Below, piece by piece: positions 931 to 60,083 of a stretch of 64,000 bases of DNA. The notes under the pieces are model-generated. The model had not been told where the DNA came from, did no database searches, and saw only the letters and a list, made by a program, of their open reading frames with translations. The position numbers were made by a program, and so were the translations under genes. Position 1 is the first letter of the stretch, and each line of letters opens with the position of its first letter. Source of the stretch: Paenibacillus sp. RC334 (GTDB taxonomy: Bacteria > Bacillota > Bacilli > Paenibacillales > Paenibacillaceae); the NCBI RefSeq assembly GCF_030034735.1, contig NZ_CP125370.1, positions 4,030,001-4,094,000 of the forward strand, in the 5' to 3' direction.

Positions 931-942
931 GAACTTAGGCTC

Positions 943-2133
943 CTATACACCGTTAATCCAAGGCTTAGGCGGATCGTTGATTATATGTTGCTTTGAAGAA
1001 ACTGTTGCCATTAACTCCTTGTTTACTCCCATACTTTTTGCCAATTTATCTTCATTAATATTAAGCGCGAATTTTAGTTGAGCTTGTTCTGCAATAAAAG
1101 TAGTATCACTTGTGGATGTTATATGTGTCAAATCAATTTGTGCTTGATAGAGCCAACTTTTGAAATTCTGTTCTAGATTTAAATGTTGACATTCCGGCAT
1201 ATTCCAACGATCAGCAAAATCTTCTGCGGGATTCACAGGATTGGGCACTCTAGGAGTATTTGCATTAATATGATTAGCCATTGTTGCTAAAATATTGTTA
1301 AGTGCTGTCACTAAATCCTTTTCACCATTATACGCTCTTGCTGCAAGGGTGGTAATTATAATAGAAATAGGCTTTGATTCGTTATCACCAAACAATTTAT
1401 CACGATGTCGCTTTAATATTTGAATACAACGTTGGAGTGGGGTTTTGCGGCTATGAGCAGGAACCCGATCTACTTGTGCTTTCTCCATGAGAATTTGTTC
1501 ATCAGTGCTTTTCATACGATGCTCAAACCATTTTCCATATCCTTCTGGATTACTAATATTCCAGTCATCGCATATTTTATTGTAACTTTGATGTCTATCA
1601 TCGGTTATTGCTACAGAAAACTGTGATGCACGTTGTGCCACTATTCGGTCAAGACCGGAGTTTACCATTGATTCCAAAAGAATTTTCTGCTCAGTATCTT
1701 CTTCTGGAATACACGGTACAATATCCATATGAAAGCTGATATCATCTTGATATTCCAATCTCCAACAACGGTGTTTAGTAATTAGCTCTTCCTTAATATT
1801 ACGGGCTTTTCTGTAAGCTTCCAGTTCGTGACCAATGAGTTTTTTTAGTGATTCCTGAGAATGGGATCGTTTTGTAACCCTAGCCCTAAGTTTACATGCC
1901 AAATCCAAATCATACTCTTCCTCTTCATTTAAAGGTCTTATTGTTGTTCCTAACATAAATGAACCTTGAGGGAAGATATGTACCTCATTGTCCTTTAATG
2001 ACGATTCATCTCGGTTAAACCATTCACCTAAGTCTTCGTAACGCTTAATCGCTCGGTCATAGGCTGATTCGGGTAAATCCAACGATTCTATCATTTCTTT
2101 AAGAATGAGTTCTTTCTGCTCTCTTGTGATCAT
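943..2133 (-). CDS. CD-NTase (cGAS/DncV-like nucleotidyltransferase) of CBASS
   Basis: A 396-aa polymerase-beta-like nucleotidyltransferase that should make a cyclic oligonucleotide second messenger on phage infection. The active site is complete: GS at residues 57-58, metal-binding D75 and D77 in YDLDL, and a third acidic residue D137 in HMDIVPC. The start is set by a GGAGGGG site that overlaps the end of the effector gene; only two bases separate the genes, so they are translationally coupled. Its neighbours, an HNH-SAVED effector and an E2-like protein, make this a CBASS. The messenger cannot be read from sequence; a SAVED effector suggests a cyclic tri- or dinucleotide. Confidence 0.92.
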   Translation of the reverse strand: MITREQKELILKEMIESLDLPESAYDRAIKRYEDLGEWFNRDESSLKDNEVHIFPQGSFMLGTTIRPLNEEEEYDLDLACKLRARVTKRSHSQESLKKLIGHELEAYRKARNIKEELITKHRCWRLEYQDDISFHMDIVPCIPEEDTEQKILLESMVNSGLDRIVAQRASQFSVAITDDRHQSYNKICDDWNISNPEGYGKWFEHRMKSTDEQILMEKAQVDRVPAHSRKTPLQRCIQILKRHRDKLFGDNESKPISIIITTLAARAYNGEKDLVTALNNILATMANHINANTPRVPNPVNPAEDFADRWNMPECQHLNLEQNFKSWLYQAQIDLTHITSTSDTTFIAEQAQLKFALNINEDKLAKSMGVNKELMATVSSKQHIINDPPKPWINGV

Positions 2134-2135
2134 GT

Positions 2136-3314
2136 TTACACCCCTCCAATTTTCAATGCTTCAATAAAAGAACCAACATCACTATTTTGATCGAAAATTA
2201 TCCAGGGCATATCTGCTTTTTGCATTCTTGCTCTTCCCATTTCAATCGCTAACGAAACAGCCATGGCAGGAAATATGCTTAGTGGTGTTTCAAAACCATG
2301 TTTTTCCTTTATCTTAATCATCAATTTTCGTATTATAGTTCTCATTAAAGACAACTGTGCTTTTGCACGAATAGTATCGTTGCCTATAAACTTGTCCGCT
2401 ACTGTCAGTTCCCAGACACATACATCTCTGCCCAGTACTTTATGAATTCTATCGAATGATATTTTATCTGACAGTGAGATAACTAGTACAGGAGGATTAT
2501 TATATGAAGACGGTTCCTTAATAATAAATTCAAATCCGTCGGGGAAATCCTGCCACTTCCAGGTTTTAGGCTCCCTTATTGGCTGATAAGTATCAACATC
2601 AATTTTATCTGTAAATAATGTGCCTAATTTAATTAGCAATGGCATTGGGGCAAGAGCAAATACAGAGAAGTGGGCAGAAGTGAGCTCATCTTCAATCCGA
2701 CGATTCACTTCTCTAGAAAACATTTTTTCCAAGTGGTTACATTCAGTAACCCAAAATTCTGGCGATTTATCTTGATGGGAACATGCCATTGACATAGTAA
2801 TAGGTCTTTCCTCAGCGGGGTAACGTTCGGGAAACATCGCTTCAATTGCATCTGATTTCTGAATAACTGACCTTTGTTCACCGATATTACTACCATAAAA
2901 AACAACATGTGATTTTCTGTTAGAAGCAATTCCTGTTACAGTCAAAACTCTATATTCGTGATTTTGTTTCCATTGTTGCAATAAACTCGCTGAATACTTT
3001 GGTCCCTTCTTATCCTGATCAATGGTTGTATGACATCCATTGCACATTAGCATCAAGTTATCTATACTGTTCAATTCCTCAGGATTTTTCTTAAATGGTC
3101 CCCAGCCTCTAGGACCAGATTCTGAGAATGAATATATATGTGCTTTCTCTGAAATGTTTACTCTCTCCTGAGTAATTGGAGACTTATATAACAAATTATT
3201 ACACCCTTGAAACTCACATCTGCCAGCGGATCTTGCCCACAATTCCCGTTCAACTTCTTTTTTGATATGTCTAGTAACTTCTTTTACTTGACCTTCTGAT
3301 TGATCTTTCGCCAC
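2136..3314 (-). CDS. cap5: CBASS effector: HNH nuclease fused to SAVED sensor
   Basis: The killer component of the CBASS operon, 392 aa from the chosen GTG. The N-terminal HNH nuclease has zinc-knuckle cysteines C33, C38, C91, C94 and the HNH residues H59, N86 and H95. The remaining ~250 residues match the SAVED layout that binds the cyclic messenger and triggers DNA degradation. I chose GTG at 3314 because GGGGGGCAGG precedes it; an ATG at 3338 and a GTG at 3347 are in frame but lack a ribosome site. It is first in the operon, so the effector is translated ahead of the CD-NTase. Full length, no lesion seen. Confidence 0.9.
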   Translation of the reverse strand: MAKDQSEGQVKEVTRHIKKEVERELWARSAGRCEFQGCNNLLYKSPITQERVNISEKAHIYSFSESGPRGWGPFKKNPEELNSIDNLMLMCNGCHTTIDQDKKGPKYSASLLQQWKQNHEYRVLTVTGIASNRKSHVVFYGSNIGEQRSVIQKSDAIEAMFPERYPAEERPITMSMACSHQDKSPEFWVTECNHLEKMFSREVNRRIEDELTSAHFSVFALAPMPLLIKLGTLFTDKIDVDTYQPIREPKTWKWQDFPDGFEFIIKEPSSYNNPPVLVISLSDKISFDRIHKVLGRDVCVWELTVADKFIGNDTIRAKAQLSLMRTIIRKLMIKIKEKHGFETPLSIFPAMAVSLAIEMGRARMQKADMPWIIFDQNSDVGSFIEALKIGGV

Positions 3315-3341
3315 ATCCTGCCCCCCATTCCATGCCATTAT

Positions 3342-3366
3342 TAGCACTGTATCATGACGAGTGCTA
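3342..3366 (-). promoter_or_regulatory. Inverted repeat upstream of CBASS operon
   Basis: TAGCACT and AGTGCTA, 7-bp perfect arms separated by 11 bases, lie 28 bases upstream of the chosen cap5 start. A TTGACA hexamer lies further upstream near 3387-3392, but no well-spaced -10 was found. An operator role is inferred from position only; no regulator gene is adjacent. Confidence 0.4.
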
Positions 3367-3679: not shown

Positions 3680-5086
3680 TTAACTGTTTCTTCTCTGTTT
3701 TTTAATCATTTTCTTCATTTTTTTCTCGTTTTTCTTTTTTTTTCGTATTTGTTTTTTTCTCATTACTTCTCGCTTAAGGTAACTAATATTAAAAACATTC
3801 GGATCAACTGAATTCATACCTTGACTCACATAAAGAGTTTTTTCTGTTTGATAAAGCAATTCCCAAATATGAACTACAGTCTGAAAAATAGCTAAGCACT
3901 TTCCTGCAAACTGAACTAAATAGATTGATCGGATGTCTGACGGCTTGTTCTTCCCTATAGGATCATATCTAATTAGTTGGCTTACTCCGTCAAACTCATA
4001 GGTGTTATGTCCAATTGCATTTCGAATTTTATTATCAACAGCACCCTCAACAATTAGATCATCAAATACCTCAGTCCTATTGATGTACTCCACTTTCTTT
4101 CCCTTTGGGACTTCAAAAAACTTATCAAACTCATACTTAGGCTTTGTATCAGACATCTTTATAAAATCGCCGCGATACTTTAAATTATTATAACCAACAA
4201 TGATCGGTAAGATCTCTGCCACTAATTCATACGTATCAATATAAAATTCTTTAATATCTTCAAATGCAGCAGTTGTCATACCCTTCTCTTCGAACAACTT
4301 TTCAGGTATCTCGTGGTAATAAGTAAGTCCATATGCAGGAATTAAAAATCTGAAGACTTCAGAAAAGTGTTCTATTGCACGTAATATTCGTTTATCATAT
4401 CTTCTAAAATGGCCTTGGAAATACTTAGATAATTCTATTAGGTTTGCAGGATTTTGCTCAAAAATAGTCTTAACTTCTTTGAATATTAGTTCGTTATGCT
4501 CGTAATCAATAATATCTTGCAAGAAAAATCTCGTAACAAAATGAACCCCACGTAAATGTTCCAGTTTATTGTTCATTGGGAATTGCTTTTTAGGCAAGAT
4601 CTTACGGATTTCTTGAGCTAAGTATTCATAATTCTCATTAATCCATAATTCATTTATTCTTCTTGTTCTTGGCCAATCATTTTCTGTTTTATAGAGAAAG
4701 CTAATTACATTTTGTTTAAATTTATCAAACTTCTCATAACTACTTTGCGGATCAGTTGGATCACCCATACCCCATAAACCCTGAAAAAAAGGGGGTGGTA
4801 TAAACCAGTGAGTTTCAGAATCAAAAGATTGTAACTTTTCAGTTAATAATTCTCCCGATGTTTCAATATAAAAATCTGCTTCATTTTCTGGAGAAACCAA
4901 AGAGGCATTTTCAATATCAATTCTAAAATCAGCATTTTCTTGGTCAAGTATGGCAATTCCCTTAATTAGAATATTACAATGTCCACAGGTATATCTAATA
5001 GGATGACGGTCTAGCCACCCATATTGGGCACGAACTAATGTTATTTGATCGCACACATCACATCTAAAGTAAGAGTGGATATTTCC
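3680..5086 (-). CDS. Zinc-ribbon protein with HEPN-like R-x4-H motif
   Basis: A 468-aa protein I do not recognise as a named family. Residues 10-38 hold two CxxC knuckles (CDVC and CGHC), a zinc ribbon. Around residue 356 the segment IRNAIGHNTY contains RNAIGH, which fits the R-(N)-x3-H catalytic motif of HEPN ribonucleases in a helical context. The last ~35 residues are almost all lysine/arginine, suggesting nucleic-acid binding. GTG 5086 is preferred over an in-frame GTG at 5101 because AGGTGG gives correct spacing only to 5086. It follows the 5102-5851 gene closely and ends in a terminator, so the two form a unit inside a defence island. The HEPN reading is inference from a short motif. 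Confidence 0.55.
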   Translation of the reverse strand, partial: GNIHSYFRCDVCDQITLVRAQYGWLDRHPIRYTCGHCNILIKGIAILDQENADFRIDIENASLVSPENEADFYIETSGELLTEKLQSFDSETHWFIPPPFFQGLWGMGDPTDPQSSYEKFDKFKQNVISFLYKTENDWPRTRRINELWINENYEYLAQEIRKILPKKQFPMNNKLEHLRGVHFVTRFFLQDIIDYEHNELIFKEVKTIFEQNPANLIELSKYFQGHFRRYDKRILRAIEHFSEVFRFLIPAYGLTYYHEIPEKLFEEKGMTTAAFEDIKEFYIDTYELVAEILPIIVGYNNLKYRGDFIKMSDTKPKYEFDKFFEVPKGKKVEYINRTEVFDDLIVEGAVDNKIRNAIGHNTYEFDGVSQLIRYDPIGKNKPSDIRSIYLVQFAGKCLAIFQTVVHIWELLYQTEKTLYVSQGMNSVDPNVFNISYLKREVMRKKQIRKKKKNEKKMKKMIKKQRRNS

Positions 5087-5101
5087 CACTAATAATCCCA
5101 C

Positions 5102-5973: not shown

Positions 5974-6651
5974 TCATTTTTTCCACCTCTTTAGCCTATC
6001 AGCCAACGCCACACCATTAATCAATTTAATGTTCAACCTATCTGCCGCCTCTTTAGCAGCCTTGGTAAAATTACTCGTCGTCACAATCCAAGCATCATAG
6101 CAACCATGTACCTGCTTCCCAGCCTTGAGCCGGAGTACAATATCATTCCCGACATCACGTTTCCAACGTTTGCACTGAACTGCAATTTTATAGCCTTCCT
6201 TGCCTTTCAAGATCAAATCAACTTCATGATCACCTGACCCGCCAACTCGTTGTACTGAGTAACCTTGATCTATATAATAAAGCTCCATTAATCGCTCAAA
6301 ATCTGTCCCTGATAGTATCTCTATATCAGCTTGGAGAATCTGTGCATCAGTCAGCTTTTTACTCGTTGTTTTCGCATTAGCCTTGCGTACCCCACTGTTC
6401 GTGCTAGTAATTCTGCTCCTAGCGGTATTCCTTGAGCCACTAGTCTTCTCCGCTTTCTTTTTCTGTCGTCGCTTTCGTGTCCACATTGTTCCAAAAATTT
6501 CTCCCAGAATCACAGAGCCAAGTAAGATACCAAAAAGGTATCCCCAGTGTAGACCAGGTATATTAAAATAAATAGTAAGTCCGACTATAATAAATAGCCC
6601 TCTCAATACATAAGCAACCTGTCTGCCTTCTGCATAATACGTTCTTGCCAA
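5974..6651 (-). CDS. Membrane-anchored Mrr-type restriction endonuclease
   Basis: A 225-aa protein. Two hydrophobic segments near residues 11-31 and 36-56 form a membrane hairpin, followed by a basic linker rich in K/R/S/T. The C-terminal ~115 residues are an Mrr_cat nuclease fold with the D-(Q/E)xK active site: D145 in HEVDLIL and Q159-C-K161 in AVQCKRW. Homologues cut DNA, some recognising modified bases. The start is TTG 6651 behind a GAGGTG ribosome site. It is a stand-alone gene about 120 bases upstream of the 5851 start, in the same orientation. Complete and apparently intact. Confidence 0.85.
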   Translation of the reverse strand: MARTYYAEGRQVAYVLRGLFIIVGLTIYFNIPGLHWGYLFGILLGSVILGEIFGTMWTRKRRQKKKAEKTSGSRNTARSRITSTNSGVRKANAKTTSKKLTDAQILQADIEILSGTDFERLMELYYIDQGYSVQRVGGSGDHEVDLILKGKEGYKIAVQCKRWKRDVGNDIVLRLKAGKQVHGCYDAWIVTTSNFTKAAKEAADRLNIKLINGVALADRLKRWKK

Positions 6652-30376: not shown

Positions 30377-33235
30377 TTATTGGATATAGACTATAGCCCT
30401 GAAGCTCGATTTCGTTACTTTTTCAATCCTGATAAATTCAATTGTCGCTCCGTCAAAATCAAGGAAGGATAATCCCTCATCCCGACGAATGGCCTGATCT
30501 CTCGGAATGATGCACTTCAATTCCCCCTGCTCATCCACAATATGAACATAGTTATGCTCGACCACCTGAACCCACAATTTCTTGCCTAATACCTGGTCAG
30601 CAACCAACTGCGATTCTTCCTCCGACTTTTTCAATGTGCTGAAGCCGAGCGAATAATTCCTCAATTTTCGTCTTGTACTCTTCCCATCCAACAGAGAAGG
30701 CGTATTACTGGTTTGTACTACGGTTTCTCGTTCAGCTTCATACCCGATAAAATACTGCCCCATAATCTCAAATAATGAATACACACCATCCGGCACATGG
30801 AATGGAAACTCCACATTATCTATCGTAGCGATGCCAGCATCAACGGTAAGCTCCTTACCTTCCACATTTCGATTCGTCAGCCAGTTTACCTTTCGTACTT
30901 CCCTCTTCAAAACATTTTCATGCTGCTTTAGGTTTTCCAGTAGTCCATCTACAAACAACCATGCAAAGGAGTATGTTCCATAATTTTGATATGCGATCTC
31001 GACAGCAGCACTGGCAAGTATTGAAGGATAAGGGCAGATCTCTTCACACTGAGTTTTGTATTCCTCTCTTAACCTAGCGTATTCCGCGCTGATTGCTTTT
31101 CTGGTATCATTGTCTCGCTGCCATTTTTTTAGCTCATTAAATTGCATACGTCGATGATCAATTGGTTTTTTCTGCTCATTGTATTCTTTATACAGTGGCT
31201 CAATGCGAGCTAGATAGCTCAGAAACTTGGGCTGACTAACTTTACTTATATCCTGTATCAGTTGTCTCGTACTTTCGATGCCCAAAATAGACTGATCCAA
31301 TTTCCCGTCTTTCATTTTGAATGTGTCATCTATGTACTTCTCAGCCTTAACGCAAAACTGGTTAAACGGCGATTTTGTCGAGTGCTGATAATCCTCGGCT
31401 TTGCCACCCTTAGCAAAACGAAAGAAATACGGCATTTGGATAGCCAGACGATCCAGCACATATGGAATCTCTACTTCTAGTCCATTCTTCGTGGCATCAA
31501 TAATTTGACCTTGGAGAAACTTTAAGACTGAGTTTTCCAAAACCCGTGCTTGAAGATCCCCCTCTTCCAAGGCTAAATTCTGAAAATACGTATTCACATT
31601 CGTACATCTACCCGTTAGATTATGTAGACTTTTTAACTCCATGTTGACGATACTGTCCATATTATTCGGCACAGGTGCAGCTACTTTTTTATCATCTTCG
31701 TTGATGATGGTAGGGGCATCGACCACTGCTGAGAGTATAGTAGAATCATTGGTACAGAGAGCCGTATCTCCATCCACATCTCCGAGTCCAAGTCTTGCCA
31801 GTGTTAAATCACAACAGTTCAGAACAATCACATTATCTAAATGACGCATATATCGGTTATGTACTTGTACAAAATCTAGCTTACCGACTTCATTAAATAT
31901 CGTTAACGGTGATCGGAATAAAGCATGCATTCCCTGTTTCCGATTCATAAAAGCCTGGTTCTTCTTTAACACACCTGTTACTGGTTTTCCGCTGGCATGC
32001 TCCATGAATGCAATCGGGTCATTAGTCAGATAAAAGTAGCTACCCTGAATCGGGATGCGACCTTTCAACATATCCTGTACCTTCTGCATGGCTTGCTTCA
32101 CGATGAATTTACGGACGTTTCCGTCATACAGCATCAATTCATTCAAATCGATAGCTTGGATGATTTCATTTATAAACTCTTTCTTCTGGCCCCGTTCTAT
32201 TTCATCTTCCTGTTCGTCGGGTTCTTCATCTACATCTTTGGGTTCATCGTCTTCTTGGACTAGCATATGTAGGAACGCTTTCGTGTACGCGATATCTCGA
32301 AGCCACTTTCCATGGGTGTCATTCTTTTGTCCATGTAGGACACGTTTGATGACATCCATTAGAGGCGTAGCTAATTGAAATAAATCGTTCAGTGTAAGAT
32401 TTAGCGCATGAATATATTGGTATGTCAGTGGTGTGTAGGCATTCATCTGGTATGTAGGCTTCGCATAGTTCGCTACCCAAAAGTGATTATGATTATGTAC
32501 TTCCAGTAATGCTTCATATTCCGTTATACTCTCGAACAAGCACTTAGGCTTAGATTGTCCTTCACTGTATTGATGCCATGCTTTGAAGCAGGATTTGGTA
32601 AGGATGAGATCAATAGGACGACCTCGTTCATCAACGATCGGCTGTGATTCACCAAAAACATCTATTATTTCTGTAACACTATTTTCATTGAACCATTTCA
32701 ACAGATCGAACCGGATAAAGTTACCTTTGATATATGGAAGTCTTCCCTGAACTGCATTAGGTGAATAGGATAGATTCAGTTGCTGTCCAATATGCTCTGC
32801 AAACTGGAAGCTCATTAGACCTTGACCATCGAAAAATTGGACATTCTTATTTTCATACTGTGGATATTCCAATCGCTTAAATCCAATGGACTCTTCATTG
32901 ATTGTGATAATGGGAATTTCTTCTGTTTGCTCGATGGAATAGCAAGGATATAGTTCATCATTATACATAACCGAACGAGCAGGAAAAGGAATTTCTTCCA
33001 ATTTCGCACGACGATTTACTTTATTCCACCCATTAAAAGTTTTATATTCATTTTGATCAGGATCAGACTTTGTACGACCATTCCACGAGATCGTTTTATT
33101 CGGTATACGTTCTAACTTATGTAATTGGTCCTTCGATGGCCTCAATTCTTTCTTCGCTTTGAAATATTCACGTTGCTTCGTCTTTTCATCGAATATCAAC
33201 TTCTGCTGTTCAAAGTCTTCAGCACACTTTTCCAC
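30377..33235 (-). CDS. YonO/QDE-1-like RNA polymerase, catalytic part
   Basis: A 952-aa protein of the two-barrel single-subunit RNA polymerase family (eukaryotic RdRP, phage YonO). It has FFDGQGLMS near residue 133, equivalent to the family's SDGxG block; the catalytic GLGDVDGDT with the metal-binding DxDGD near 485; and a downstream FLQGQIIDATKNGLEVEIP block that aligns with the conserved A-x-D-x-x-K-x-G strand. YonO is a DNA-dependent RNA polymerase for phage late genes, the likely role here. GTG 33235 directly follows the TAA of the 33236-33775 frame and is in the same frame, so the enzyme is interrupted by one stop codon. Confidence 0.82.
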   Translation of the reverse strand: MEKCAEDFEQQKLIFDEKTKQREYFKAKKELRPSKDQLHKLERIPNKTISWNGRTKSDPDQNEYKTFNGWNKVNRRAKLEEIPFPARSVMYNDELYPCYSIEQTEEIPIITINEESIGFKRLEYPQYENKNVQFFDGQGLMSFQFAEHIGQQLNLSYSPNAVQGRLPYIKGNFIRFDLLKWFNENSVTEIIDVFGESQPIVDERGRPIDLILTKSCFKAWHQYSEGQSKPKCLFESITEYEALLEVHNHNHFWVANYAKPTYQMNAYTPLTYQYIHALNLTLNDLFQLATPLMDVIKRVLHGQKNDTHGKWLRDIAYTKAFLHMLVQEDDEPKDVDEEPDEQEDEIERGQKKEFINEIIQAIDLNELMLYDGNVRKFIVKQAMQKVQDMLKGRIPIQGSYFYLTNDPIAFMEHASGKPVTGVLKKNQAFMNRKQGMHALFRSPLTIFNEVGKLDFVQVHNRYMRHLDNVIVLNCCDLTLARLGLGDVDGDTALCTNDSTILSAVVDAPTIINEDDKKVAAPVPNNMDSIVNMELKSLHNLTGRCTNVNTYFQNLALEEGDLQARVLENSVLKFLQGQIIDATKNGLEVEIPYVLDRLAIQMPYFFRFAKGGKAEDYQHSTKSPFNQFCVKAEKYIDDTFKMKDGKLDQSILGIESTRQLIQDISKVSQPKFLSYLARIEPLYKEYNEQKKPIDHRRMQFNELKKWQRDNDTRKAISAEYARLREEYKTQCEEICPYPSILASAAVEIAYQNYGTYSFAWLFVDGLLENLKQHENVLKREVRKVNWLTNRNVEGKELTVDAGIATIDNVEFPFHVPDGVYSLFEIMGQYFIGYEAERETVVQTSNTPSLLDGKSTRRKLRNYSLGFSTLKKSEEESQLVADQVLGKKLWVQVVEHNYVHIVDEQGELKCIIPRDQAIRRDEGLSFLDFDGATIEFIRIEKVTKSSFRAIVYIQ

Positions 33236-33775
33236 TTACCATACATCCTCAATGATCGTATCCTTTTCATAATCTGGAATAACAACGATACGTGGAATAT
33301 ATGGGACTGACTGTGCTGCTGAACGACTTACACCAAGAGCTGCTTCCCATTTGTGGATATTGGTGAGTGATGGCATTTTGCCGAGTGTAATGTGTCGATA
33401 TAGATCAGCAGCATACTTTTCCTGGATAAATTCCGTTCGCTGAGTACGTCCCATCGCAGGTGACTTGATCGAACGGATATATTTCCTTCCATTATAGTAG
33501 ATGCCATCTCGTAACATACGTTCAAACAAAGCAAGTTGAGATGGATCGTCTTCGTCAATTTGATCAGCTTTGAGCATAAAAATGACTTCGGTAACATTAG
33601 TGAAAGGATCATGCTCTGCTACGACTCGTTTGAGTTGATCGAGATAGATACTGTTCGATACGGTGATGGTACGTGTGCTGGATTGTGGTGCACAAAGTTG
33701 ATTGCCTTCATGAGTGATCTCGTTGAAGTGGATCAGTTTGATTTGGTATTGATTTCGTGTTGGATTACTGGACAA
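33236..33775 (-). CDS. YonO/QDE-1-like RNA polymerase, N-terminal part
   Basis: A 179-aa frame from TTG 33775 (AGGAGG, 7-base spacer). Its second half follows the pre-catalytic region of RdRP-family enzymes: NGRKYIRSIKSPAMGRTQRT (compare the family's GRxYxFLxxSxSQxR block), LYRHITLGKMPSLTNIHKW, and RIVVIPDYE, which in homologues leads into the catalytic chain. It ends in TAA, with the catalytic part continuing in the same frame at the next codon. Possibilities are two separately translated subunits, stop-codon readthrough, or a recent nonsense mutation. It is the first gene of the element's minus-strand block and lies under a LexA-like box. Confidence 0.62.
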   Translation of the reverse strand: MSSNPTRNQYQIKLIHFNEITHEGNQLCAPQSSTRTITVSNSIYLDQLKRVVAEHDPFTNVTEVIFMLKADQIDEDDPSQLALFERMLRDGIYYNGRKYIRSIKSPAMGRTQRTEFIQEKYAADLYRHITLGKMPSLTNIHKWEAALGVSRSAAQSVPYIPRIVVIPDYEKDTIIEDVW

Positions 33776-34304: not shown

Positions 34305-35303
34305 CTAGTTAGAATTTAAACTTATATTCTGATCGATAATAGAAAGTAAAGGAAATAGTGAATCTCTATAGTTTACATTATTAAAGTATATCAACTGTTG
34401 ATGTGCGTCTAATTGGTTTCTAACTAAAAACTCTACAACTAACTCTCTTAACCTACATAATAAAGTGTAATTATCAATTATGCTTGAAGTTGATTTTAAT
34501 AGTATGCTAATCGTATTATTAATTAAATCATTTAAATAATCTTCTTCATAGTGGATATTCTCAGCTTTTAGAAGATCGAAATATATTGTCCTTTTGCCCT
34601 CCAACTTATCATATTGTGAAAAGAATTTTGTATTGAAAATTCTGCCTATTGTCCCATTTGCTGTATTACGACGAAGAAAATTAGAAAATTCTTTCTCCTC
34701 CATTGAAAAGTCTACAGTCTCATCAAATAGTTTGGCACAAATATATTTAAGAGAACTAACCACAGCATCAATCTTAAAATCAAACCCTTGTGTACTCTCT
34801 TTTATAACAAATGCAGTATTTTTAGAATATGCACCATTAAGCAATAAAAAAACCACAAAAATTAATTCTTTAGTGGACAGCCCTAAAGGAAAAAGTTTTT
34901 CAATTTTATTTATAGCTACTTTTGAAATACCCCTTGAAAGAAATGGATATGCTTCTAAACAATAATGTTCTAGATCTTTTAAATAACCATTATCTTTTAA
35001 CAACATTAATTGAACTATTATTCCAAACTCTGTTATTACCAAGTAATTGTTTACTTTAATAATTAAATTTTTATCTAAAAGTTGTTGTATGTCCTGTTCA
35101 ATAGTGATTGAAGAACTTTGTTGAACTATACTGTTATATTTCATTTCTTTTGAAAACAAATCCTTTCTAACTCTTCTTACAACAAACGAGCTCATCCATT
35201 TATCAAAATTCTTTTCGTTCTCTAACATATCACTTTTAATGTCACCTATATATTTCAAGTTAGCTAAATAAATTTCAGTTAAACTATTCAGTATAAAATT
35301 CAT
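34305..35303 (-). CDS. Winged-helix-like third component of ABC operon
   Basis: A 332-aa, helix-rich, AT-rich protein. Residues ~75-100 (IEQDIQQLLDKNLIIKVNNY, then LVITEFGII) have the helix-helix-wing pattern of a winged helix. The rest is helical with no motif. It starts at ATG 35303 (AAGGTGGGG site), 12 bases after the SMC-like ATPase stop, so it is the last gene of the operon. Kleisin/KITE-type or 'middle component' partners of SMC-like defence ATPases (Lamassu LmuC, ABC-three-component systems) have this kind of size and place. That link is inference. Confidence 0.5.
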   Translation of the reverse strand: MNFILNSLTEIYLANLKYIGDIKSDMLENEKNFDKWMSSFVVRRVRKDLFSKEMKYNSIVQQSSSITIEQDIQQLLDKNLIIKVNNYLVITEFGIIVQLMLLKDNGYLKDLEHYCLEAYPFLSRGISKVAINKIEKLFPLGLSTKELIFVVFLLLNGAYSKNTAFVIKESTQGFDFKIDAVVSSLKYICAKLFDETVDFSMEEKEFSNFLRRNTANGTIGRIFNTKFFSQYDKLEGKRTIYFDLLKAENIHYEEDYLNDLINNTISILLKSTSSIIDNYTLLCRLRELVVEFLVRNQLDAHQQLIYFNNVNYRDSLFPLLSIIDQNISLNSN

Positions 35304-35315
35304 CCCATCCCCACC

Positions 35316-37472
35316 TTATCTAATGGCTTTCATATCAATATTATCTTTCAAATGATTTACCTTTACGAAAATTCCTAGGCCAAGTGAATTGACCTCTTCC
35401 ATTGTCTCGTAAGTTTTATCTGCCAAAACACTACCAACATCGCCCCATTCGTCTACCAATAAAATTACACCAAATTCTTTTAAACTTTTTTTAGAAGCAA
35501 AACTTACAACCGTCATTGCAGAATCTGTTCCTCCACTTATCCCCTCTTTAGTACTGACCTTCCTATTACCAATATCGAATTCCATCGTTTCATAATTATA
35601 ATTAATTAATGGAAGTTTCTTAATCTCACTAGATTCATTCACTTCAAAATAGTATTTGCATCTCAATGCCATATATTGATTAAACAAAATTATTACTGCA
35701 TCATGTAATAGAGTTTGTCTAGAAGCCTGAATAACTGACACTTTCTCTTTACCTTCTTTTACATCTTCTATTGCTAAATAATTATAAACAGCTCTTAAAT
35801 CCTGGAGTATTTTAGACATTTCCTTCGTATCTTGAAATTTTTTAGGAAATAGCAAAACATTTTCTCCTATTTTTATTGCCCCTTCTAATTCCTTTTTATA
35901 AGATGTTATTTTCTCGTACAGACTTTTTTTGGTTTCATTTGTAAAATTTAGATCAATTTTATTAAGACATTTTTCTAAATGTTGGAAGAAAATACTTTGT
36001 TCATTTTTTTGGAATTTTTCAAAAATACCCTTTAATTGGTCGTTATCAGAAAAATCATCTACATACTCTAAAAAGCGGATTATCTTTTCAAGATCAATTA
36101 AGTCGCTCGTTATCTCTGAAATTTCTTTATCAATCAAATATTGTTGCTGCTTAATTTCTTCCAATTCATTAATGGAACTAAATAATTTTTCCCCATAAGA
36201 ATCAATTTTGTATTTCAAATCTTGTAACTGTGTGTGAATAGATGAAATATTGTTTATAAACTCCCTGTATGAGTTAATAGAATTTACGCTCATATTCGAA
36301 AAAAATCTGCTAGAAACATTAAAAGGTATAGTCTTTCCTTCTTCTAAATCTGCAGGTATACGATTATACTTACTTATATTAGTATTTATGTTCAATTCAG
36401 CCCATTCAGAATTAAAAAGCGATAATTGCTGTTTTATGTTACTAAGTGAAAACTTCATAGGAAGTGTTGCTGATGCGTTATTAAATAGATCTAATATTTG
36501 TTGAATACTTTTCAATTTTAGTTCTTTTGACCTTTCCGCTTCTTCATATTTTTTTTTAAGTTTTAAAATTTCATTTCTATTTTGAGATGCAACTTCCTTT
36601 ACAGATGTTACAGTGAAATGATTATATAGTTTTGAATTGACTTGCTGTTTTAGAAAATAAATTATTTCAATTGGTATATCAATCTTATCTAAAAAATTAA
36701 TTGCTTTATTAACGTAAACTAAATGACTTGAGGCTTCTGCTTCTGATCTTATTTTATTTTTTTCATTTGAGGAATCTAATGCCTTAGTAACAACATCAGA
36801 CAATTTATTTTCTATTAAACTTAATGTAACTAAGAACTCCTCTCTAATTTCTTTATGAACATTTCCAACAAAATTTCTTCCTTTTGAAATAAATTGAGGG
36901 TCAGCAATATTTAAAGATCCTACATATTCTTTATATATTTTATAGGCCGAATTATACTCATTTTCATTAAGTGCAATTACCTGTTTTTTTCCATTATAAA
37001 TAATAATAATTTCAGTAGGATTCTTAGTAAAACTAAACAAACTTTCAGAATTAGTGATTTCGAGAGAAATAATAGTATCATTAGCACTAAAAAGTTTAGA
37101 AACCAGCTGCCCTACTTTAGTTAAGATTTGATTCGATGAAATCATGTCTATTGCTTCATTAAAGTCGAACCCTAGTATCAAAGCTATCAAAATTAAGGAG
37201 GTAGTTTTAAAGCGTTGATTTGTCCCTGTTACTTCAAATATTTTACCTTTGTTTGCCGAACTTAATGTGACGTCTGCCTTCCCTTCCTCTAATTTTTTTA
37301 TTACGAGACGAAAACTAGATGGTTCTTTTCGTTTTTCAAGTTGCTCTTCTGAAAAATAATCAAATATTTGTGCTATATAACTTTCAGAGATTTCCGAATT
37401 AATAAAATGGTTTTTTACCTCATTTACCAATTCTTTATTTATAAAAACCTCATTGCTAAGCCACGTGTTCAT
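35316..37472 (-). CDS. SMC-like ABC ATPase with coiled coil
   Basis: A 718-aa protein. Near residues 83-91 TGTNQRFKTTS fits a Walker A (GxxxxGK-T/S) except that the last glycine is phenylalanine. Long coiled-coil stretches fill ~200-570. Near the C terminus come an ABC-signature-like EGISGGTDSAMT and a Walker B GVILLVDEWGD, then a switch region. This head/coil/head order is that of SMC/Rad50-type ATPases in Lamassu and ABC-three-component defence systems. It overlaps the propeller gene by 17 bases. The altered Walker A could mean unusual or absent ATP hydrolysis. Start ATG 37472 or TTG 37475, behind GAGAGG. Confidence 0.7.
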   Translation of the reverse strand: MNTWLSNEVFINKELVNEVKNHFINSEISESYIAQIFDYFSEEQLEKRKEPSSFRLVIKKLEEGKADVTLSSANKGKIFEVTGTNQRFKTTSLILIALILGFDFNEAIDMISSNQILTKVGQLVSKLFSANDTIISLEITNSESLFSFTKNPTEIIIIYNGKKQVIALNENEYNSAYKIYKEYVGSLNIADPQFISKGRNFVGNVHKEIREEFLVTLSLIENKLSDVVTKALDSSNEKNKIRSEAEASSHLVYVNKAINFLDKIDIPIEIIYFLKQQVNSKLYNHFTVTSVKEVASQNRNEILKLKKKYEEAERSKELKLKSIQQILDLFNNASATLPMKFSLSNIKQQLSLFNSEWAELNINTNISKYNRIPADLEEGKTIPFNVSSRFFSNMSVNSINSYREFINNISSIHTQLQDLKYKIDSYGEKLFSSINELEEIKQQQYLIDKEISEITSDLIDLEKIIRFLEYVDDFSDNDQLKGIFEKFQKNEQSIFFQHLEKCLNKIDLNFTNETKKSLYEKITSYKKELEGAIKIGENVLLFPKKFQDTKEMSKILQDLRAVYNYLAIEDVKEGKEKVSVIQASRQTLLHDAVIILFNQYMALRCKYYFEVNESSEIKKLPLINYNYETMEFDIGNRKVSTKEGISGGTDSAMTVVSFASKKSLKEFGVILLVDEWGDVGSVLADKTYETMEEVNSLGLGIFVKVNHLKDNIDMKAIR

Positions 37473-39306
37473 CAATGATGACCGCCTCTCGATTTTTTAT
37501 CACATAAATCGTTCTATTAGATGTGATATATAGAGCTCCATAACCACAACTCAGCTTATAGCCGTCACTGTTTTCCATCAGTTCTAATTTACTTGTAGTT
37601 TCTAAAGCATCATCTAAATTCTTTAGAATAAAAAAGTTATTTTCAATTGTAAGTACTGCATACAAACCATTGCATCTTATAATATCCGTAATTGCTTTTC
37701 TTTTTATTTCTGAGAACACTACTTTGTGTGTCGCCTCAGATGCATTAAAGATTATTCTAATAATTCTTTCATTAGAAGCTATTATTAATGTATTAGGTGT
37801 TTCTACAACAATAGGGTTATCATGAATATCTATCATTAAATCATATTTAACAATATCATCAGATTTAACTGATAAATCCCAGCGTAAAATTGAGTGAGAA
37901 GTAATAATAAAGCAAACGTCATTTATACCAAGTACTCTATTAATAGTACTTAATTTAATTTCCTCCACAAAATCAGCCACTCTATTTTTATCTCTTTTAA
38001 AAACTTGTATGCACCCTTCTCCTACAAAAACAAAGAACGAATTAAAAACTAAGACATCTGTATAACTTTCTTTTTTATACTTTTCTGGTATCACAAAAGA
38101 AAACGAAGAATTATCATTTAAGAAAAATAACCTTCCCATATTTGTTAGTCCTATTATTTCTTTATCTTTTGGCTTCAAAGAGACAACTTCTTCTCCTTCT
38201 CCAATTAAAAATTCTGTCTGCAATAAATCTCCTTTAATATTGTACAAAGATATTTCATCATTTGTTGCAATCCCTATAGAATTTTCCACAAATATAGGTC
38301 CTAAGAGTACGTTCCCTATATTATTTAGTTTTCGTTGAAGTCCAGATTCTAAGTTTATAACAACAAGGTTTCTTTCTGTAGATAGAATACATCCATATTC
38401 TTTTCCAATTATTAATTGTGATTTTATGTACTCTCCCTCCTTTAATATTTCTGGTGAGCGTACATCTTCACTTAGTGCATAAGAACTGTTAACGGAATTA
38501 GTTGCATCGTAATATGGGCTGGTCCATAAAGAAGCCATTTTTTCTTGTACAAAACTAGCTTCCGAATTAATCTGATTAACGAATGGCTTTAACCGGGATT
38601 CAAAATTATTATTGATAAGTCTCATATTTTTCACATCAAAAGTTAAAATACAAATTCTTAAATTTATTATTTCTTTTAATATACCCCTATTAAAGAACGC
38701 ACTTAATTCTAATAAAAGCTTCTTATTGAAACAACTCACTATGGATTTGACAACATAAAAATTAAACTCACTTGTCCCAATATCCACATTAATGGATTCC
38801 AAAGTCGACAACAAATAAGTACTTGTAACATATTTATTTTCCAATACAAGACTTAGTAGTTTCAACTTTTGATTATTATCAACTTTAGTAAATAAATTAT
38901 ATAATTCTTGCTCCGCCCCATACGTTGAGAGAGACGTCTCACATAATAAGTTGGTCACTTTAGTTAGATGGTCTAATGATAAATCAGATGTCTCGTCAAA
39001 AATACTTGATAAAAAAACTGAAATTAAATTATTAGAAACCGGTATCTGTAGAGATTGACTAGGTAAAAAAACATGTTCGTAATATTTACACAAGTCAATG
39101 GTGTTATCAAATGGAATACTTTTAAAAATTTGTTTGTAATTTTTTCGATGAAACTGTGAAAATAATATAAGAAAGCAGTAATGCTCAATTTCAAATTTAA
39201 TTAGGCTACATCTTTGTATCAATTGAATAGTCACCATTTCATTGGGGTATTCCTCAAATCCTTGCTCTTTTTTCACTTTATAAAAAGTATTTATTGAATC
39301 AAGCAA
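37456..39306 (-). CDS. Beta-propeller protein of the SIR2 operon
   Basis: A 616-aa protein. The first ~260 residues are helical; from ~290 to the end, repeating 35-45-residue units of short strands (for example CILSTERNLVVINLESG and GIATNDEISLYNIKGDL) indicate a WD40/PQQ-like beta-propeller. No signal peptide is present. It could be the sensor or scaffold that recognises phage protein. The start is uncertain: TTG 39306 gives a gap of 8 bases to the SIR2 stop, but the ribosome site is weak. I know of no described defence operon with this exact partner. Confidence 0.6.
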   Translation of the reverse strand: MLDSINTFYKVKKEQGFEEYPNEMVTIQLIQRCSLIKFEIEHYCFLILFSQFHRKNYKQIFKSIPFDNTIDLCKYYEHVFLPSQSLQIPVSNNLISVFLSSIFDETSDLSLDHLTKVTNLLCETSLSTYGAEQELYNLFTKVDNNQKLKLLSLVLENKYVTSTYLLSTLESINVDIGTSEFNFYVVKSIVSCFNKKLLLELSAFFNRGILKEIINLRICILTFDVKNMRLINNNFESRLKPFVNQINSEASFVQEKMASLWTSPYYDATNSVNSSYALSEDVRSPEILKEGEYIKSQLIIGKEYGCILSTERNLVVINLESGLQRKLNNIGNVLLGPIFVENSIGIATNDEISLYNIKGDLLQTEFLIGEGEEVVSLKPKDKEIIGLTNMGRLFFLNDNSSFSFVIPEKYKKESYTDVLVFNSFFVFVGEGCIQVFKRDKNRVADFVEEIKLSTINRVLGINDVCFIITSHSILRWDLSVKSDDIVKYDLMIDIHDNPIVVETPNTLIIASNERIIRIIFNASEATHKVVFSEIKRKAITDIIRCNGLYAVLTIENNFFILKNLDDALETTSKLELMENSDGYKLSCGYGALYITSNRTIYVIKNREAVIIDEHVA

Positions 39307-39314
39307 ATACCCAT

Positions 39315-40154
39315 TTATCTGATCATCTTTGTTTTTTTTTCATATTCTGCAATCAAGTTTGCTAAAAATTCTTCACTTGTCATTGGAACATGCCGAACAT
39401 TTATTTTTTCGCTCAAATATTTCATTCTATTCTCATTAATTCCTTCCAATGGAACAACAAGATAATGTTTCAGAAAAGAATTAACATCATTCAGTTTACG
39501 TATGTTAAATAATATATCCATTAAATCCTGATCTTCCATACTGAATCCTATGAATACACAAGAATTGTCACGAAAAATTGAATACAAAGTTTTCATGAGA
39601 TTTTCATCTGACTTAACATTATAGTAATCTTCCGATGTAAGTACAAAATGATTTTCAGATGTAATGCAACCATGTATTTTATAAAGGTGTTTTTGTGAGG
39701 TATAACTTTCTCCTTTACGCCATACCTCTAGATCTTTTTCATATTCTTGCTTATAACAATTTTCTAGTAAATTGTCATAATTCACAGTAAAAACTAATTC
39801 TTTTAAATCACCCAAATCATGCATTAATCTAGCTAAATACCTATGGCTTTCTTGTACTACAAGTCTGGATTTAAGATACTCCTTTACTTCTTGGATCAGT
39901 GCTTGCTTTCCAAACACAACCTCATAATATTCTGCTGTACGCTGAAGATTTTCAATATTTTTCATTTGAAGCTTGTCGCCTAAAAATTTTGATACTTCCC
40001 ATCCGCTTCCCAATCCTTTAGCAGCTGGATTATAAGTATCCCTCATAGAAAACCCAGCACCAAGTATAAATACCACACCTGTACCAGTTCTATTCTTCTT
40101 ATTTAAAAGTAGCTTTGCAATTTGTTGTATATCAAGTGTAGTTATTAATTCCAT
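39315..40154 (-). CDS. SIR2-family NADase, first gene of operon
   Basis: A 279-aa SIR2_2-type protein. NAD-binding GAGFS starts at residue 32, the FTVNYDNLLE block carries N125-Y126-D127, catalytic H161 is in KIHGC, and a late FIGFSMEDQDLMDIL block matches the GxSxxD motif. In bacterial defence, SIR2 effectors drain NAD+ to stop infection (Thoeris, DSR, SIR2-HerA, Lamassu-Sir2). Here SIR2 stands alone and opens a compact operon with a propeller, an SMC-like ATPase and a winged-helix-like protein. ATG 40154 follows AAGGA. Base composition is much AT-richer than the flanking elements, suggesting transfer. Confidence 0.85.
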   Translation of the reverse strand: MELITTLDIQQIAKLLLNKKNRTGTGVVFILGAGFSMRDTYNPAAKGLGSGWEVSKFLGDKLQMKNIENLQRTAEYYEVVFGKQALIQEVKEYLKSRLVVQESHRYLARLMHDLGDLKELVFTVNYDNLLENCYKQEYEKDLEVWRKGESYTSQKHLYKIHGCITSENHFVLTSEDYYNVKSDENLMKTLYSIFRDNSCVFIGFSMEDQDLMDILFNIRKLNDVNSFLKHYLVVPLEGINENRMKYLSEKINVRHVPMTSEEFLANLIAEYEKKTKMIR

Positions 40155-40224: not shown

Positions 40225-41040
40225 ATGAGTGAAACGAAAAAAAACAGGAGAAGCCTCTAAGGTCCCCTTTAAGATTCCCGGGTTCCAAAAGCAAAGTGTT
40301 AAAAAAAATTCGAAAAATACCTTGCTGTTGAACATACTGAGTATCGCGAGCCCTTTGTTGGAGGAGGGGCTATTTTTTTTGGGAAGCAAATTGCCAAATA
40401 TAATTGGCTAAATGATAAAGATGTTAATATAAAAAGCTTTCTGAAAACTGTCAGAGACAATCCTAACTATCTGTGTGAAATGGTTCGTAAAATAAAGCCA
40501 AGCGTGGAGCTATGGCAGTATTATAGAACACAAGAAATTAGTAATAGCGATTTAATTCGAGCTTTCAGATTTCTATTCTTTAATAGGACAAACTATTCAG
40601 GTATTTACAACGCCAATCCTATAGGTGGACTTAAACAACTATCTGATTGGAAAATTGATTGCAGATGGAATGCTGATATGCTTTGCAAAAGAATTTTAGA
40701 ATGTTCAAAAAAATTGAAAAATGTCAATATAACCTCCTTAGATTTCAGTGATGTGATTACTGCGCCTGGAGAAAATGTCCTTTTGATGGTGGATCCCCCA
40801 TACTATGAGAAGGGTAGTAGATTATATCCTGTTAGTATGTCTCCTAATGAACATCAGCATCTTGCAGAATTATTAAGAGATACCAATCATAATTTTTTTC
40901 TAACAATTGATGATTGCCCAGAAGTTAGGGAGATGTACAACTGGGCAAATTTTATTCCGCAAAATTGGTACTATACTGTAAACTCCAAAAAGAAAGATAA
41001 CGTAGGTAAAGAATTATTCATCACTAATATTAATATTTAA
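40225..41040 (+). pseudogene. Dam-type (D12) adenine methyltransferase, frameshifted
   Basis: A D12-class N6-adenine methyltransferase that would be ~270 aa. Motif FVGGGAIFFG and catalytic DPPYYEKGS are present, as is FFNRTNYSGIYN. Three +1 insertions within ~100 bases break the start: an A8 tract near 40236, GGG near 40281, and A5 near 40314. Removing one base at each restores MSETKKTGEASKVPFKIPGS and onward in frame. The 3' 560 bases are intact. All three lie in homopolymers, so real decay or sequencing error are both possible. It diverges from the SIR2 gene across 70 bases. Confidence 0.82.
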
Positions 41041-58829: not shown

Positions 58830-60083
58830 TTACATGTTCACTAATCCTAGATCAGCAACAACTTCTGAATAGCCTACCTTCACTCCATCTCGAATCAGAT
58901 AAACGCCGCTATCGCTGCCAACATGGGCAATATATCGCTTCACAATCACATCTACATATTTGGGATCAAGCTCACACGTATAACAAATCCGATCCGTTTC
59001 CGCACAAGCAATCAACGTTGAGCCTGAACCACCAAATGGATCAAATACGATATCACCAAGCTTGCTTGAATTTTTAATCGGATAGCTAATTAAGGGAATC
59101 GGCTTCATGGTGGGATGAAACTCATTCCGGAAGGGACGATCAAATTGCCATAATGTCGTTTGCTTACGATCACTGTTCCAGTAGTGTCCACCTGTCGGCT
59201 TCCAACCATATAATACGGGTTCGTGCATCCATTGATAATCTTGTCTACCCATAACCATCGCTTGCTTTGCCCATATGCAGCATTGTGCCAGTTTGAATCC
59301 AGCTTCAATAAATGCCTTCCTAAAATTCAATCCTTCACTATCTGCGTGGAACACATAAATACTTGCTCCGTCATCTGCTACTTCATACATTCGAGTATAA
59401 GCTGCCAATAGGAAATTATAAAACTCGTGATTGGTCATTTTATCATTTTCAATTTTCAATGCATCCTTGGTTTTACCTGTATAATCCACATTATAAGGTG
59501 GATCAGTTACAATAAGCTGAGCCTTCTTACCATCCATCAATGTTGTAATATCCTGCGGATTAGTTGAGTCTCCACAGATGAGCCTATGCTTACCAAGTAT
59601 CCAAATGTCACCTTTACGAGTTATCGGATGCTCAGGCAATGCTTCTTCTAAATCAAAATCATCCTCATCATCTACAGTTTCCTCGTGCAATGTATCCAGC
59701 AACTTCTCACACTCGCTCATATCAAATCCAGTTAGAGAAAGATCATAATCAGCCAGTTTTAATTCTTCCATTTCCTGCGCCAACAATTCAAAATTCCAAT
59801 CTGCATACTCAGCCGTTTTGTTATCAGCGATTCTGAAGGCTTTGACCTCTTCTGGTGTTAAGTCATCGACTAATATAGTTGGTACTTCCTTTAGTCCAAG
59901 CTTCTTAGCTGCTAACAAACGAGTATGACCTGCTATGATTTCATGATTACTGTCAATCAGAATGGGATTTTTAAAACCATAACTCTGAATACTTGTTGCT
60001 ACATAATCTACAGCTTTCTCATTATTTCTGGCGTTTTTTATGTATGGAATTAACGTTTTTACGTTTACGAATATGATTTCCAA
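58830..60083 (-). CDS. ParB-domain N6/N4 DNA methyltransferase, copy 2
   Basis: A 417-aa protein. Residues ~1-130 are a ParB-like domain (AGHTRLLAAKKLGLKEVPTI) distinct from that of copy 1. From about residue 140 (LLDTLHEETV) it matches copy 1 closely, with DPPYNVDYTG and DPFGGSGST. It starts at TTG 60083 inside the small membrane gene, in another frame, behind AAGGGGG. Vestiges show copy 1 once had this same start. It ends in DLGLVNM, unlike copy 1. Confidence 0.85.
   Translation of the reverse strand: MEIIFVNVKTLIPYIKNARNNEKAVDYVATSIQSYGFKNPILIDSNHEIIAGHTRLLAAKKLGLKEVPTILVDDLTPEEVKAFRIADNKTAEYADWNFELLAQEMEELKLADYDLSLTGFDMSECEKLLDTLHEETVDDEDDFDLEEALPEHPITRKGDIWILGKHRLICGDSTNPQDITTLMDGKKAQLIVTDPPYNVDYTGKTKDALKIENDKMTNHEFYNFLLAAYTRMYEVADDGASIYVFHADSEGLNFRKAFIEAGFKLAQCCIWAKQAMVMGRQDYQWMHEPVLYGWKPTGGHYWNSDRKQTTLWQFDRPFRNEFHPTMKPIPLISYPIKNSSKLGDIVFDPFGGSGSTLIACAETDRICYTCELDPKYVDVIVKRYIAHVGSDSGVYLIRDGVKVGYSEVVADLGLVNM

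What the first reader, a model, noticed from the sequence alone, without database searches (positions are those of the whole stretch)
34305..40154. Four-gene operon SIR2 + beta-propeller + SMC-like ATPase + winged-helix protein: candidate new defence system
Seen: four minus-strand genes with gaps of 8, -17 and 12 bases, far more AT-rich than both neighbours, bounded by a terminator and a transposase relic. Known: SIR2 NADases are abortive-infection effectors, and SMC-like ATPases with a small third component form Lamassu and ABC-three-component systems. Inference: SIR2 is the effector, the ATPase plus winged-helix protein the trigger, and the large propeller protein an extra sensor not in the standard sets I know. 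The Walker A has Phe in place of its last Gly.
Basis: partly seen in the sequence, partly recalled or inferred. Interest (0 to 1): 0.85.

Follow-up and report, generated by a model that had tools for sequence, protein, structure and literature searches.

The report
SIR2 defence module with slippery switch
A Paenibacillus bacterium carries, in a phage-derived stretch of its genome, a rare gene group (a DNA methyltransferase, broken here, a SIR2 enzyme with a propeller half, an ATPase and a winged-helix protein, the last two named by prediction) that would likely kill phage-infected cells by destroying NAD+, and in all five copies whose DNA was read a run of 9 to 11 A's lies where the SIR2 and propeller halves meet, which likely lets the cell make the enzyme with and without that half.

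Summary
The AT-rich operon is real, but "four genes" is not the right parts list. (1) SIR2 and propeller form one protein in 3 relatives; in 4 of 5 loci read as DNA (window included) they are split at the same place, a run of 9-11 A, with the continuation always in the -1 frame. That fits a slippage or phase switch better than one-off decay. (2) The "transposase relic" is a broken D12 adenine methyltransferase; its relatives stand beside SIR2 in the other 4 loci, and 5 non-carrier genomes had no close match. (3) The ATPase has ABC-type motifs in SMC order; the last protein has a modelled winged helix. Profile libraries do not place either, so Lamassu/ABC-3C membership is not supported, though the SIR2 domain does hit a Lamassu effector model. 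(4) The module flanks one of two tandem phage-derived blocks; CBASS lies in the same flank of the other. Best reading: a rare, unnamed NADase defence module, possibly methylation-gated, with a slippery effector. All function is inferred, and assembly error or decay in the window's own copy is not excluded.

The parts
34305..35303 (-). winged-helix protein, 332 aa
   Evidence: ORF; model pLDDT 82.6 with N-terminal winged helix; relatives in 4 other loci
35316..37475 (-). ABC/SMC-type ATPase (by motif), 719 aa: G-T-N-Q-R-F-K-T at 84, Q-loop-like QFISKGR at 194, signature-like GISGGTDSA at 645, Walker B LVDEWGD at 673
   Evidence: motifs kept in 7 of 7 members
37456..39306 (-). helical-repeat plus beta-propeller half, 616 aa from its first TTG; its frame is open up to the A-run
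39332..39340 (-). run of nine A on the coding strand at the SIR2/propeller join; the propeller frame is -1 relative to SIR2
   Evidence: A9-A11 at the same place in 4 of 4 other loci
39315..40154 (-). SIR2 domain protein, 279 aa, with N125 (TVNYD) and H161 (KIHGC)
   Evidence: PF13289 E 2.4e-24
40225..41040 (+). divergent D12-class adenine methyltransferase, reading frame broken twice; longest open piece 40480-41040 with DPPY motif
   Evidence: intact beside SIR2 in 4 of 4 other loci

Best explanation
This is a predicted anti-phage module in which a SIR2 enzyme joined to a propeller half, likely made in long and short forms at a conserved A-run, would be switched on by an ATPase and winged-helix pair that likely senses foreign DNA lacking the partner methyltransferase's mark, and would then destroy NAD+. 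Shown: the gene set and its linkage in 5 of 5 loci, the fused and split states, the A9-A11 run at the join in 5 of 5 loci, and the conserved motifs. Inferred step by step: (i) the D12 methyltransferase marks host DNA; (ii) the ATPase and winged-helix protein patrol DNA in SMC-like fashion and fire on unmarked or unusual invading DNA; (iii) they dock on the propeller and helical repeats of the long form; (iv) the SIR2 domains, from long and short forms together, assemble into an active NADase, and the infected cell dies or stops growing before phage release. The short form would come from reading straight through the A-run in the split alleles; the long form from transcripts that slipped, or from a -1 ribosomal shift. 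In the fused allele L007 the two roles would be reversed.
For: SIR2 Pfam hit, with the Asn and His recalled as the NADase site in 7 of 7 SIR2 sequences (6, T. avium read by eye). Fused SIR2-propeller in P0004, P0006 and L007; split in window, L005, L006 and L008, each time at the Lys/A-run and to the -1 frame. The continuation past the shift keeps [DN]-[DE]-[QR]-[IL]-N in window, P0004, P0006, L005 and L006; before the first start codon of its frame L005 has 8 of 29 and L006 15 of 50 residues identical to P0004, about as much as the rest. Runs are A9, A10, A9, A10, A11 in window, L005, L006, L007, L008, whereas runs of nine or more A were 0 in 353.8 coding kb sampled from the window's genome and 1 in 347.8 kb of another. 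The other two such runs in the operon ORFs scanned leave the frame intact. First starts of the propeller frame are TTG in 3 of 4 split loci, with 0-4 bases of ribosome-site match, and in L006 lie 50 codons past the run. Slippage on nine A is documented for Thermus dnaX (PMC1088944, passages) and a Firmicutes transposase (PMC6211511, passages). Methyltransferase beside SIR2 in 5 of 5 loci; no comparable gene in 5 non-carriers. Defence context: CBASS near the sister block; defence-type hits for 4 of 9 neighbours scanned in related loci.
Against: The window's methyltransferase is broken and its genome has no other close copy, so if that gene were essential for self-protection the module must be silent here or the model is wrong. 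T. avium's SIR2 has a further internal frame break. A second assembly of what looks like the same strain carries other frame breaks in this gene (P0005), so indel errors occur in at least one of the two. Given the protein sequence, an A-run of the observed length at the join is not rare in any one locus (resampled P 0.42, 0.24, 0.27, 0.16, 0.32). The window has a third A9 run in an unrelated ORF at 3680-5101. Weak ribosome sites are not special to the propeller starts: L007 ATPase and L008 winged-helix starts also score 3. No downstream stimulatory RNA structure (z -0.2 to -1.9). ATPase-to-SMC homology is not significant. No activity, phage or methylation data exist here.
Confidence: 0.5

Rival explanations
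1. Phase variation at DNA level: the A-run is a replication-slippage contingency tract that switches the long effector on and off between cells, with no meaningful slippage in expression.
For: Close pairs differ in state: window (split) versus P0004 (fused) at 98% identity, and L008 (split) versus L007 (fused), whose ATPases are 66% identical. Poly-A/T tracts are named as possible phase-variation tracts in PMC3711429 (passages).
Against: All four split alleles keep a long, conserved, open propeller frame, as expected if some long product is always made. Runs of nine A slip in transcription in other bacteria.
Confidence: 0.3
2. The split is decay or assembly error, and the window's copy is a dead remnant of a working system.
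For: In the window the methyltransferase also changes frame twice, at or beside two A8 runs. P0005, from a near-identical assembly, is broken elsewhere. T. avium SIR2 has another break. Out-of-frame neighbouring ORF pairs of all kinds are more numerous in the window's genome sample than in G002 (104 against 65).
Against: The same join is split in the same direction in L005 and L008, where SIR2, propeller, ATPase, winged-helix and methyltransferase frames are otherwise intact. Mean ORF length (328 against 335 aa) and out-of-frame neighbour pairs with a homopolymer at the junction (4 against 3) are close to those of G002.
Confidence: 0.25
3. A divergent Lamassu/ABC-three-component system (SIR2 effector, winged-helix middle component, ABC ATPase), with the methyltransferase an unrelated neighbour.
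For: Similar logic: Lamassu combines an SMC-like LmuB, a small LmuC and an effector that can be SIR2 (PMC10586767, passages). The SIR2 domain hits a PADLOC LmuA model at E 4.9e-11 over 99-261.
Against: That hit is weaker than those to ThsA (1.1e-18) and PDC-S25 (1.8e-18) and covers the shared SIR2 domain. 0 of 7 ATPases hit any PADLOC model at E <= 1; 0 of 5 winged-helix proteins hit a middle-component model in Pfam. The methyltransferase is beside SIR2 in 5 of 5 loci.
Confidence: 0.2
4. The module guards against plasmids or competes with other mobile elements; phage are not its main target.
For: It flanks a phage-derived block, and SMC-type defences such as Wadjet and Lamassu also act on plasmids (PMC10586767, passages).
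Against: No direct evidence either way; the sister block has CBASS, an anti-phage system, in the same flank.
Confidence: 0.2

Closest known systems
Lamassu / ABC-three-component systems
   Same: ABC/SMC-type ATPase gene beside a small partner and an effector that can be SIR2 (PMC10586767, passages); SIR2 domain hits a PADLOC LmuA model at E 4.9e-11
   Different: no profile match of ATPase or partner; added helical-repeat/propeller half, methyltransferase and A-run join
SIR2 NADase defences (DSR2, ThsA of Thoeris, SIR2-Ago)
   Same: SIR2 domain with conserved Asn and His; PADLOC hits to ThsA 1.1e-18, Dsr1 7.4e-14, Dsr2 1.5e-9
   Different: the window's SIR2 ORF ends after the SIR2 domain and its propeller ORF hits none of these models; a separate ATPase pair; Dsr2 NCBIfam score 32.4 against a cut-off of 1400
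PD-lambda-5
   Same: methyltransferase fragment is closest to its B subunit model, E 3.4e-42; the authors call that system a compact prophage version of an RM+Abi system (PMC9519451, passages)
   Different: none of the other six proteins scanned matches a PD-lambda-5 model
Wadjet / MukBEF kleisins
   Same: three of the eight best Foldseek rows for the winged-helix model are chains of Wadjet JetABC entries (taken to be JetA by their length) and one is MukF
   Different: all E >= 0.15, not significant; no JetA homologue in the window's genome; no profile match of JetA to the winged-helix protein
Recoded genes with A-runs (Thermus dnaX, IS1447)
   Same: run of nine A, with products of two lengths (PMC1088944; PMC6211511; passages)
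   Different: here in a SIR2 gene; products not shown

Membership tests
Lamassu / ABC-3C | LmuB-type ATPase detectable by profile | tested here: not met
   0 of 7 ATPases match any PADLOC model at E <= 1; no SMC, AAA_15 or AAA_23 hit in Pfam, only AAA_31 at 0.089 in one member
Lamassu / ABC-3C | middle component (LmuC / ABC-3C MC) detectable by profile | tested here: not met
   0 of 5 winged-helix proteins match such a Pfam model; window's protein hits nothing in PADLOC (the other four were not scanned there). That the libraries hold these models is recalled
Lamassu / ABC-3C | LmuA-type effector | tested here: inconclusive
   SIR2 domain hits an LmuA model at E 4.9e-11, but ThsA and PDC-S25 models at about 1e-18
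Lamassu / ABC-3C | ATPase fold and complex geometry | not tested
SIR2 NADase effectors | SIR2 domain with catalytic Asn and His | tested here: met
   PF13289 E 2.4e-24; N and H present in 7 of 7; their catalytic role is recalled
SIR2 NADase effectors | NAD+ depletion on infection | not testable with these tools
   needs an assay
DSR2 | full-length match to the Dsr2 model | tested here: not met
   32.4 bits, cut-off 1400
PD-lambda-5 | B subunit: D12 methyltransferase | tested here: met
   E 3.4e-42
PD-lambda-5 | A subunit partner | tested here: not met
   none of the other six window proteins scanned hits a PD-lambda-5 model
Wadjet | JetA kleisin | tested here: not met
   PF18982: no match in G000, the window's genome
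Wadjet / SMC accessory | kleisin- or KITE-like fold of the winged-helix protein | tested here: inconclusive
ABC/SMC ATPases | Walker A near N-terminus, signature and Walker B near C-terminus, long middle region | tested here: met
   motifs in order in 7 of 7, with Phe/Tyr in place of the last P-loop Gly
ABC/SMC ATPases | significant profile similarity to SbcC or SMC | tested here: not met
   hhalign probabilities below 2%
Slippage-recoded genes | conserved slippery run at a conserved frame transition | tested here: met
   A9-A11 in 5 of 5; split to -1 in 4 of 5
Slippage-recoded genes | two products from one template | not testable with these tools
   needs RNA or protein data

The most novel reading that the evidence does not exclude
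A methylation-gated, SMC-driven NADase immune system whose effector is recoded: transcriptional slippage (or a -1 ribosomal shift) at a conserved A-run sets the ratio of bare SIR2 to SIR2-propeller, so that a few sensor-bearing subunits seed an oligomer of cheap enzyme subunits, and replication slippage of the same run lets lineages tune or silence suicide immunity.
Probability: 0.3. Interest if true: 0.88.

Novelty: new variant of a known kind. Interest (0 to 1): 0.74.

Why it matters
If right, it adds a rare, unnamed NADase defence family with an ATPase and partner that the profile libraries used here miss. It joins two logics usually kept apart, DNA marking and suicide by NAD+ loss. It also offers a testable case of a defence effector whose enzyme-to-sensor ratio is set by a slippery A-run. 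It warns, too, that gene callers and defence finders could split or discard such effectors as pseudogenes.

Tried and rejected
Transposase relic: rejected, D12 methyltransferase. Minus-strand terminator between 34305 and 33700: not found. Independent start of the propeller gene: disfavoured, because the start position varies and the sites score 3, 4 (at long spacing), 0 and 3 bases; but not excluded, since some ordinary starts in these operons also score 3. In that script two comparison starts were misplaced by me (L005 at 5277, L006 SIR2 by one base); I do not use them. Stimulatory hairpin for a ribosomal shift: no clear one, so transcriptional slippage is preferred but not proven. Spread on phages, plasmids or viral contigs: no ATPase match, no winged-helix match in viral contigs; the plasmid search with P0004 gave 51 records, none covering 80% of the query, and the 20 rows shown lie within its SIR2 part. 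A second round of protein search with an alignment found the same three ATPases. Weak ATPase match in G752 (E 3.5e-4, two stops, middle region only): dropped as chance. Profile comparison of the ATPase with SbcC and SMC sets and of the winged-helix protein with JetA: not significant; a first run with a wrong option was discarded; one of the six sequences in my 'SMC' set (L101) ends like SbcC, so that set was mixed. Not listed among the 50 winged-helix rows: any Lamassu subunit; this excludes nothing. In the residue script the first half of T. avium SIR2 was read in a wrong frame; its motifs were read instead. No report of this gene set or of a recoded SIR2 defence gene was seen in the rows shown (capped lists, open-licence PMC papers only).
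Full report
What is there. Four minus-strand ORFs lie at 34305-40154 as described, with GC 0.25-0.32; the left flank is mostly 0.38-0.43, while on the right the AT-rich stretch continues through the methyltransferase before rising to 0.44-0.51. Of the four window proteins only SIR2 has a significant Pfam hit (PF13289, E 2.4e-24); the other three have no hit at E <= 0.001 in Pfam, PADLOC, NCBIfam or PHROGs. The window lies in a 5.98-Mb single-contig genome; its nearest protein relatives are from Paenibacillus polymyxa at 98%, so the host is taken to be close to that species (inference). The one other genome held of the same species lacks the ATPase and the effector.

Relatives. Protein searches gave three ATPases (P0001 98%, P0002 53%, P0003 37%), two fused SIR2-propeller proteins (P0004, P0006) and a fragment P0005. 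The genome scan gave four loci: L005 P. silagei, L006 Tumebacillus avium, L007 P. ihumii, L008 P. massiliensis subsp. panacisoli (4 of 64 pattern matches). In genome surveys the ATPase was found in 2 of 75 (genus), 5 of 394 (family, one of them a weak match that I dropped), 2 of 398 (class) and 1 of 398 (phylum), each count including the window's own genome; in the last three at most two candidates a genome were scored in the genomes listed. The family falls into two clades with 21-25% ATPase identity between them. It is rare in what was searched, and seen only in Paenibacillaceae and one Tumebacillus.

One effector, not two genes. P0004 (897 aa), P0006 (891 aa) and L007 (830 aa) carry SIR2 and propeller in one protein. 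In the window, L005, L006 and L008 the SIR2 frame ends a few codons after a lysine stretch encoded by a run of A, and the sequence homologous to the fused proteins continues in the -1 frame. Run lengths are A9 (window), A10 (L005), A9 (L006), A11 (L008) and A10 (L007, fused). The window's genome sample (20 stretches, 353.8 coding kb) has no run of nine or more A on a coding strand and G002 has one in 347.8 kb; the window itself has three in 55.1 coding kb, two of them in this operon. The operons are AT-rich, so a fairer test is synonymous resampling: at the join, runs as long as observed arise with P 0.42, 0.24, 0.27, 0.16 and 0.32; the product is about 0.0014 (my arithmetic; loci not fully independent, and the lysines themselves are taken as given). 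Of seven runs of nine or more A in the operon ORFs scanned, five are at the join; the two others, both in ATPase genes, leave the frame intact.

How the join is read. The first start codons of the propeller frame are TTG in the window, L006 and L008 and ATG in L005, at varying distance, with ribosome-site matches of 3, 0, 3 and 4 bases; 4 to 6 is usual for the other starts of these operons, but two of them also score 3. In L005 and L006 the first start lies 29 and 50 codons past the run, and the stretch before it aligns with the fused proteins at 8 of 29 and 15 of 50 identities to P0004. Downstream RNA folding is unremarkable (z -0.2 to -1.9). Transcriptional slippage on nine A is established for Thermus dnaX, where short and long forms are both made (PMC1088944, passages), and for a Firmicutes transposase at about 16% in each direction (PMC6211511, passages including the abstract). 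I therefore prefer slippage, with a ribosomal -1 shift and phase variation as alternatives. Related pairs differ in state (window/P0004; L008/L007), so the tract itself mutates. Caution: P0005, from a 5,982,516-base contig that looks like another assembly of the window's strain, has different frame breaks, so at least one assembly has indel errors. In the window's genome sample, out-of-frame neighbouring ORF pairs with a homopolymer at the junction were not in excess (4 against 3 in G002), although such pairs of all kinds were more numerous (104 against 65).

The methyltransferase. The plus-strand remnant at 40225-41040 is a D12 adenine methyltransferase (PF02086), closest in PADLOC to PD-Lambda-5_B (E 3.4e-42). 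Intact copies (268-279 aa) stand beside SIR2 in L005-L008, divergent in three and co-directional in L006. In ten genomes searched (five carriers, five non-carriers of the many available), the five carriers have it at E <= 1.8e-137, each at the module; of the non-carriers three have no match and two have distant ones (8.6e-26, 1.5e-22) (the profile was built from carriers, which favours them). In the window it changes frame twice, at or beside A8 runs, and no other close copy exists in the genome. That is the main fact against methylation-gated self-protection in this strain, unless the module is silent here.

Context. The window holds two tandem phage-derived blocks (9039-30358 and 41679-63166; main pieces 86-94% identical). 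The module lies directly left of the second block. In the left flank of the first lie an Mrr nuclease gene and, 5.7-8.8 kb away, a CBASS set (E2, cyclase, SAVED-HNH); the far end of that flank is outside the window, so exact equivalence of place cannot be shown. In related loci 5 of 9 neighbours scanned hit PADLOC models: PDC-M26A (L007, L008), a cytosine methyltransferase and a PDC-S41/Nhi/AbiO-like protein (L005), and a TnsB-like transposase (L006). This supports a defence role by position only.

Known kinds. Lamassu works similarly on paper (SMC-like ATPase, small partner, effector that may be SIR2; PMC10586767, passages), but ATPase and partner do not match by profile; the SIR2 domain hits an LmuA model at 4.9e-11, weaker than ThsA and PDC-S25. 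PD-lambda-5 is described as a compact RM+Abi system (PMC9519451, passages), and that paper also reports a propeller joined to an Mrr nuclease (passages); only the methyltransferase is shared here. I file the module as a new variant of SIR2 suicide defence, not as a Lamassu. The rows shown include no report of this set; subscription papers and preprints were mostly not searchable.

Verdict. Function and both product forms are inferred.

Noticed in passing
9039-30358 and 41679-63166: Two tandem phage-derived blocks, main pieces 86-94% identical, with a recombinase and a baseplate-hub-like gene (scanned in the second copy), carrying different cargo in their left flanks.
   Followed up: partly
286-3347: CBASS set: E2-like protein, DncV-like cyclase, SAVED-HNH effector; an Mrr-type nuclease at 5974-6651.
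   Followed up: partly
30377-33775: RdRP/RNA-polymerase-like gene (PF05183, phrog_8308) that seems split into two ORFs (30377-33235 and 33236-33775), both matching the same phage family.
   Followed up: no
40225-40480: The methyltransferase remnant changes frame twice, at or beside A8 runs.
   Followed up: partly
L006:5314-6134: T. avium SIR2 has a further frame break inside the domain near a G-run, besides the A-run join.
   Followed up: no
58830-60083: Type II methyltransferase (PADLOC PDLC03229, E 6.3e-150); a partner endonuclease was not looked for.
   Followed up: no
35316-37475 and 3680-5101: Further A9 runs on the coding strand, one in the ATPase gene (frame intact) and one in an unassigned ORF.
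   Followed up: partly
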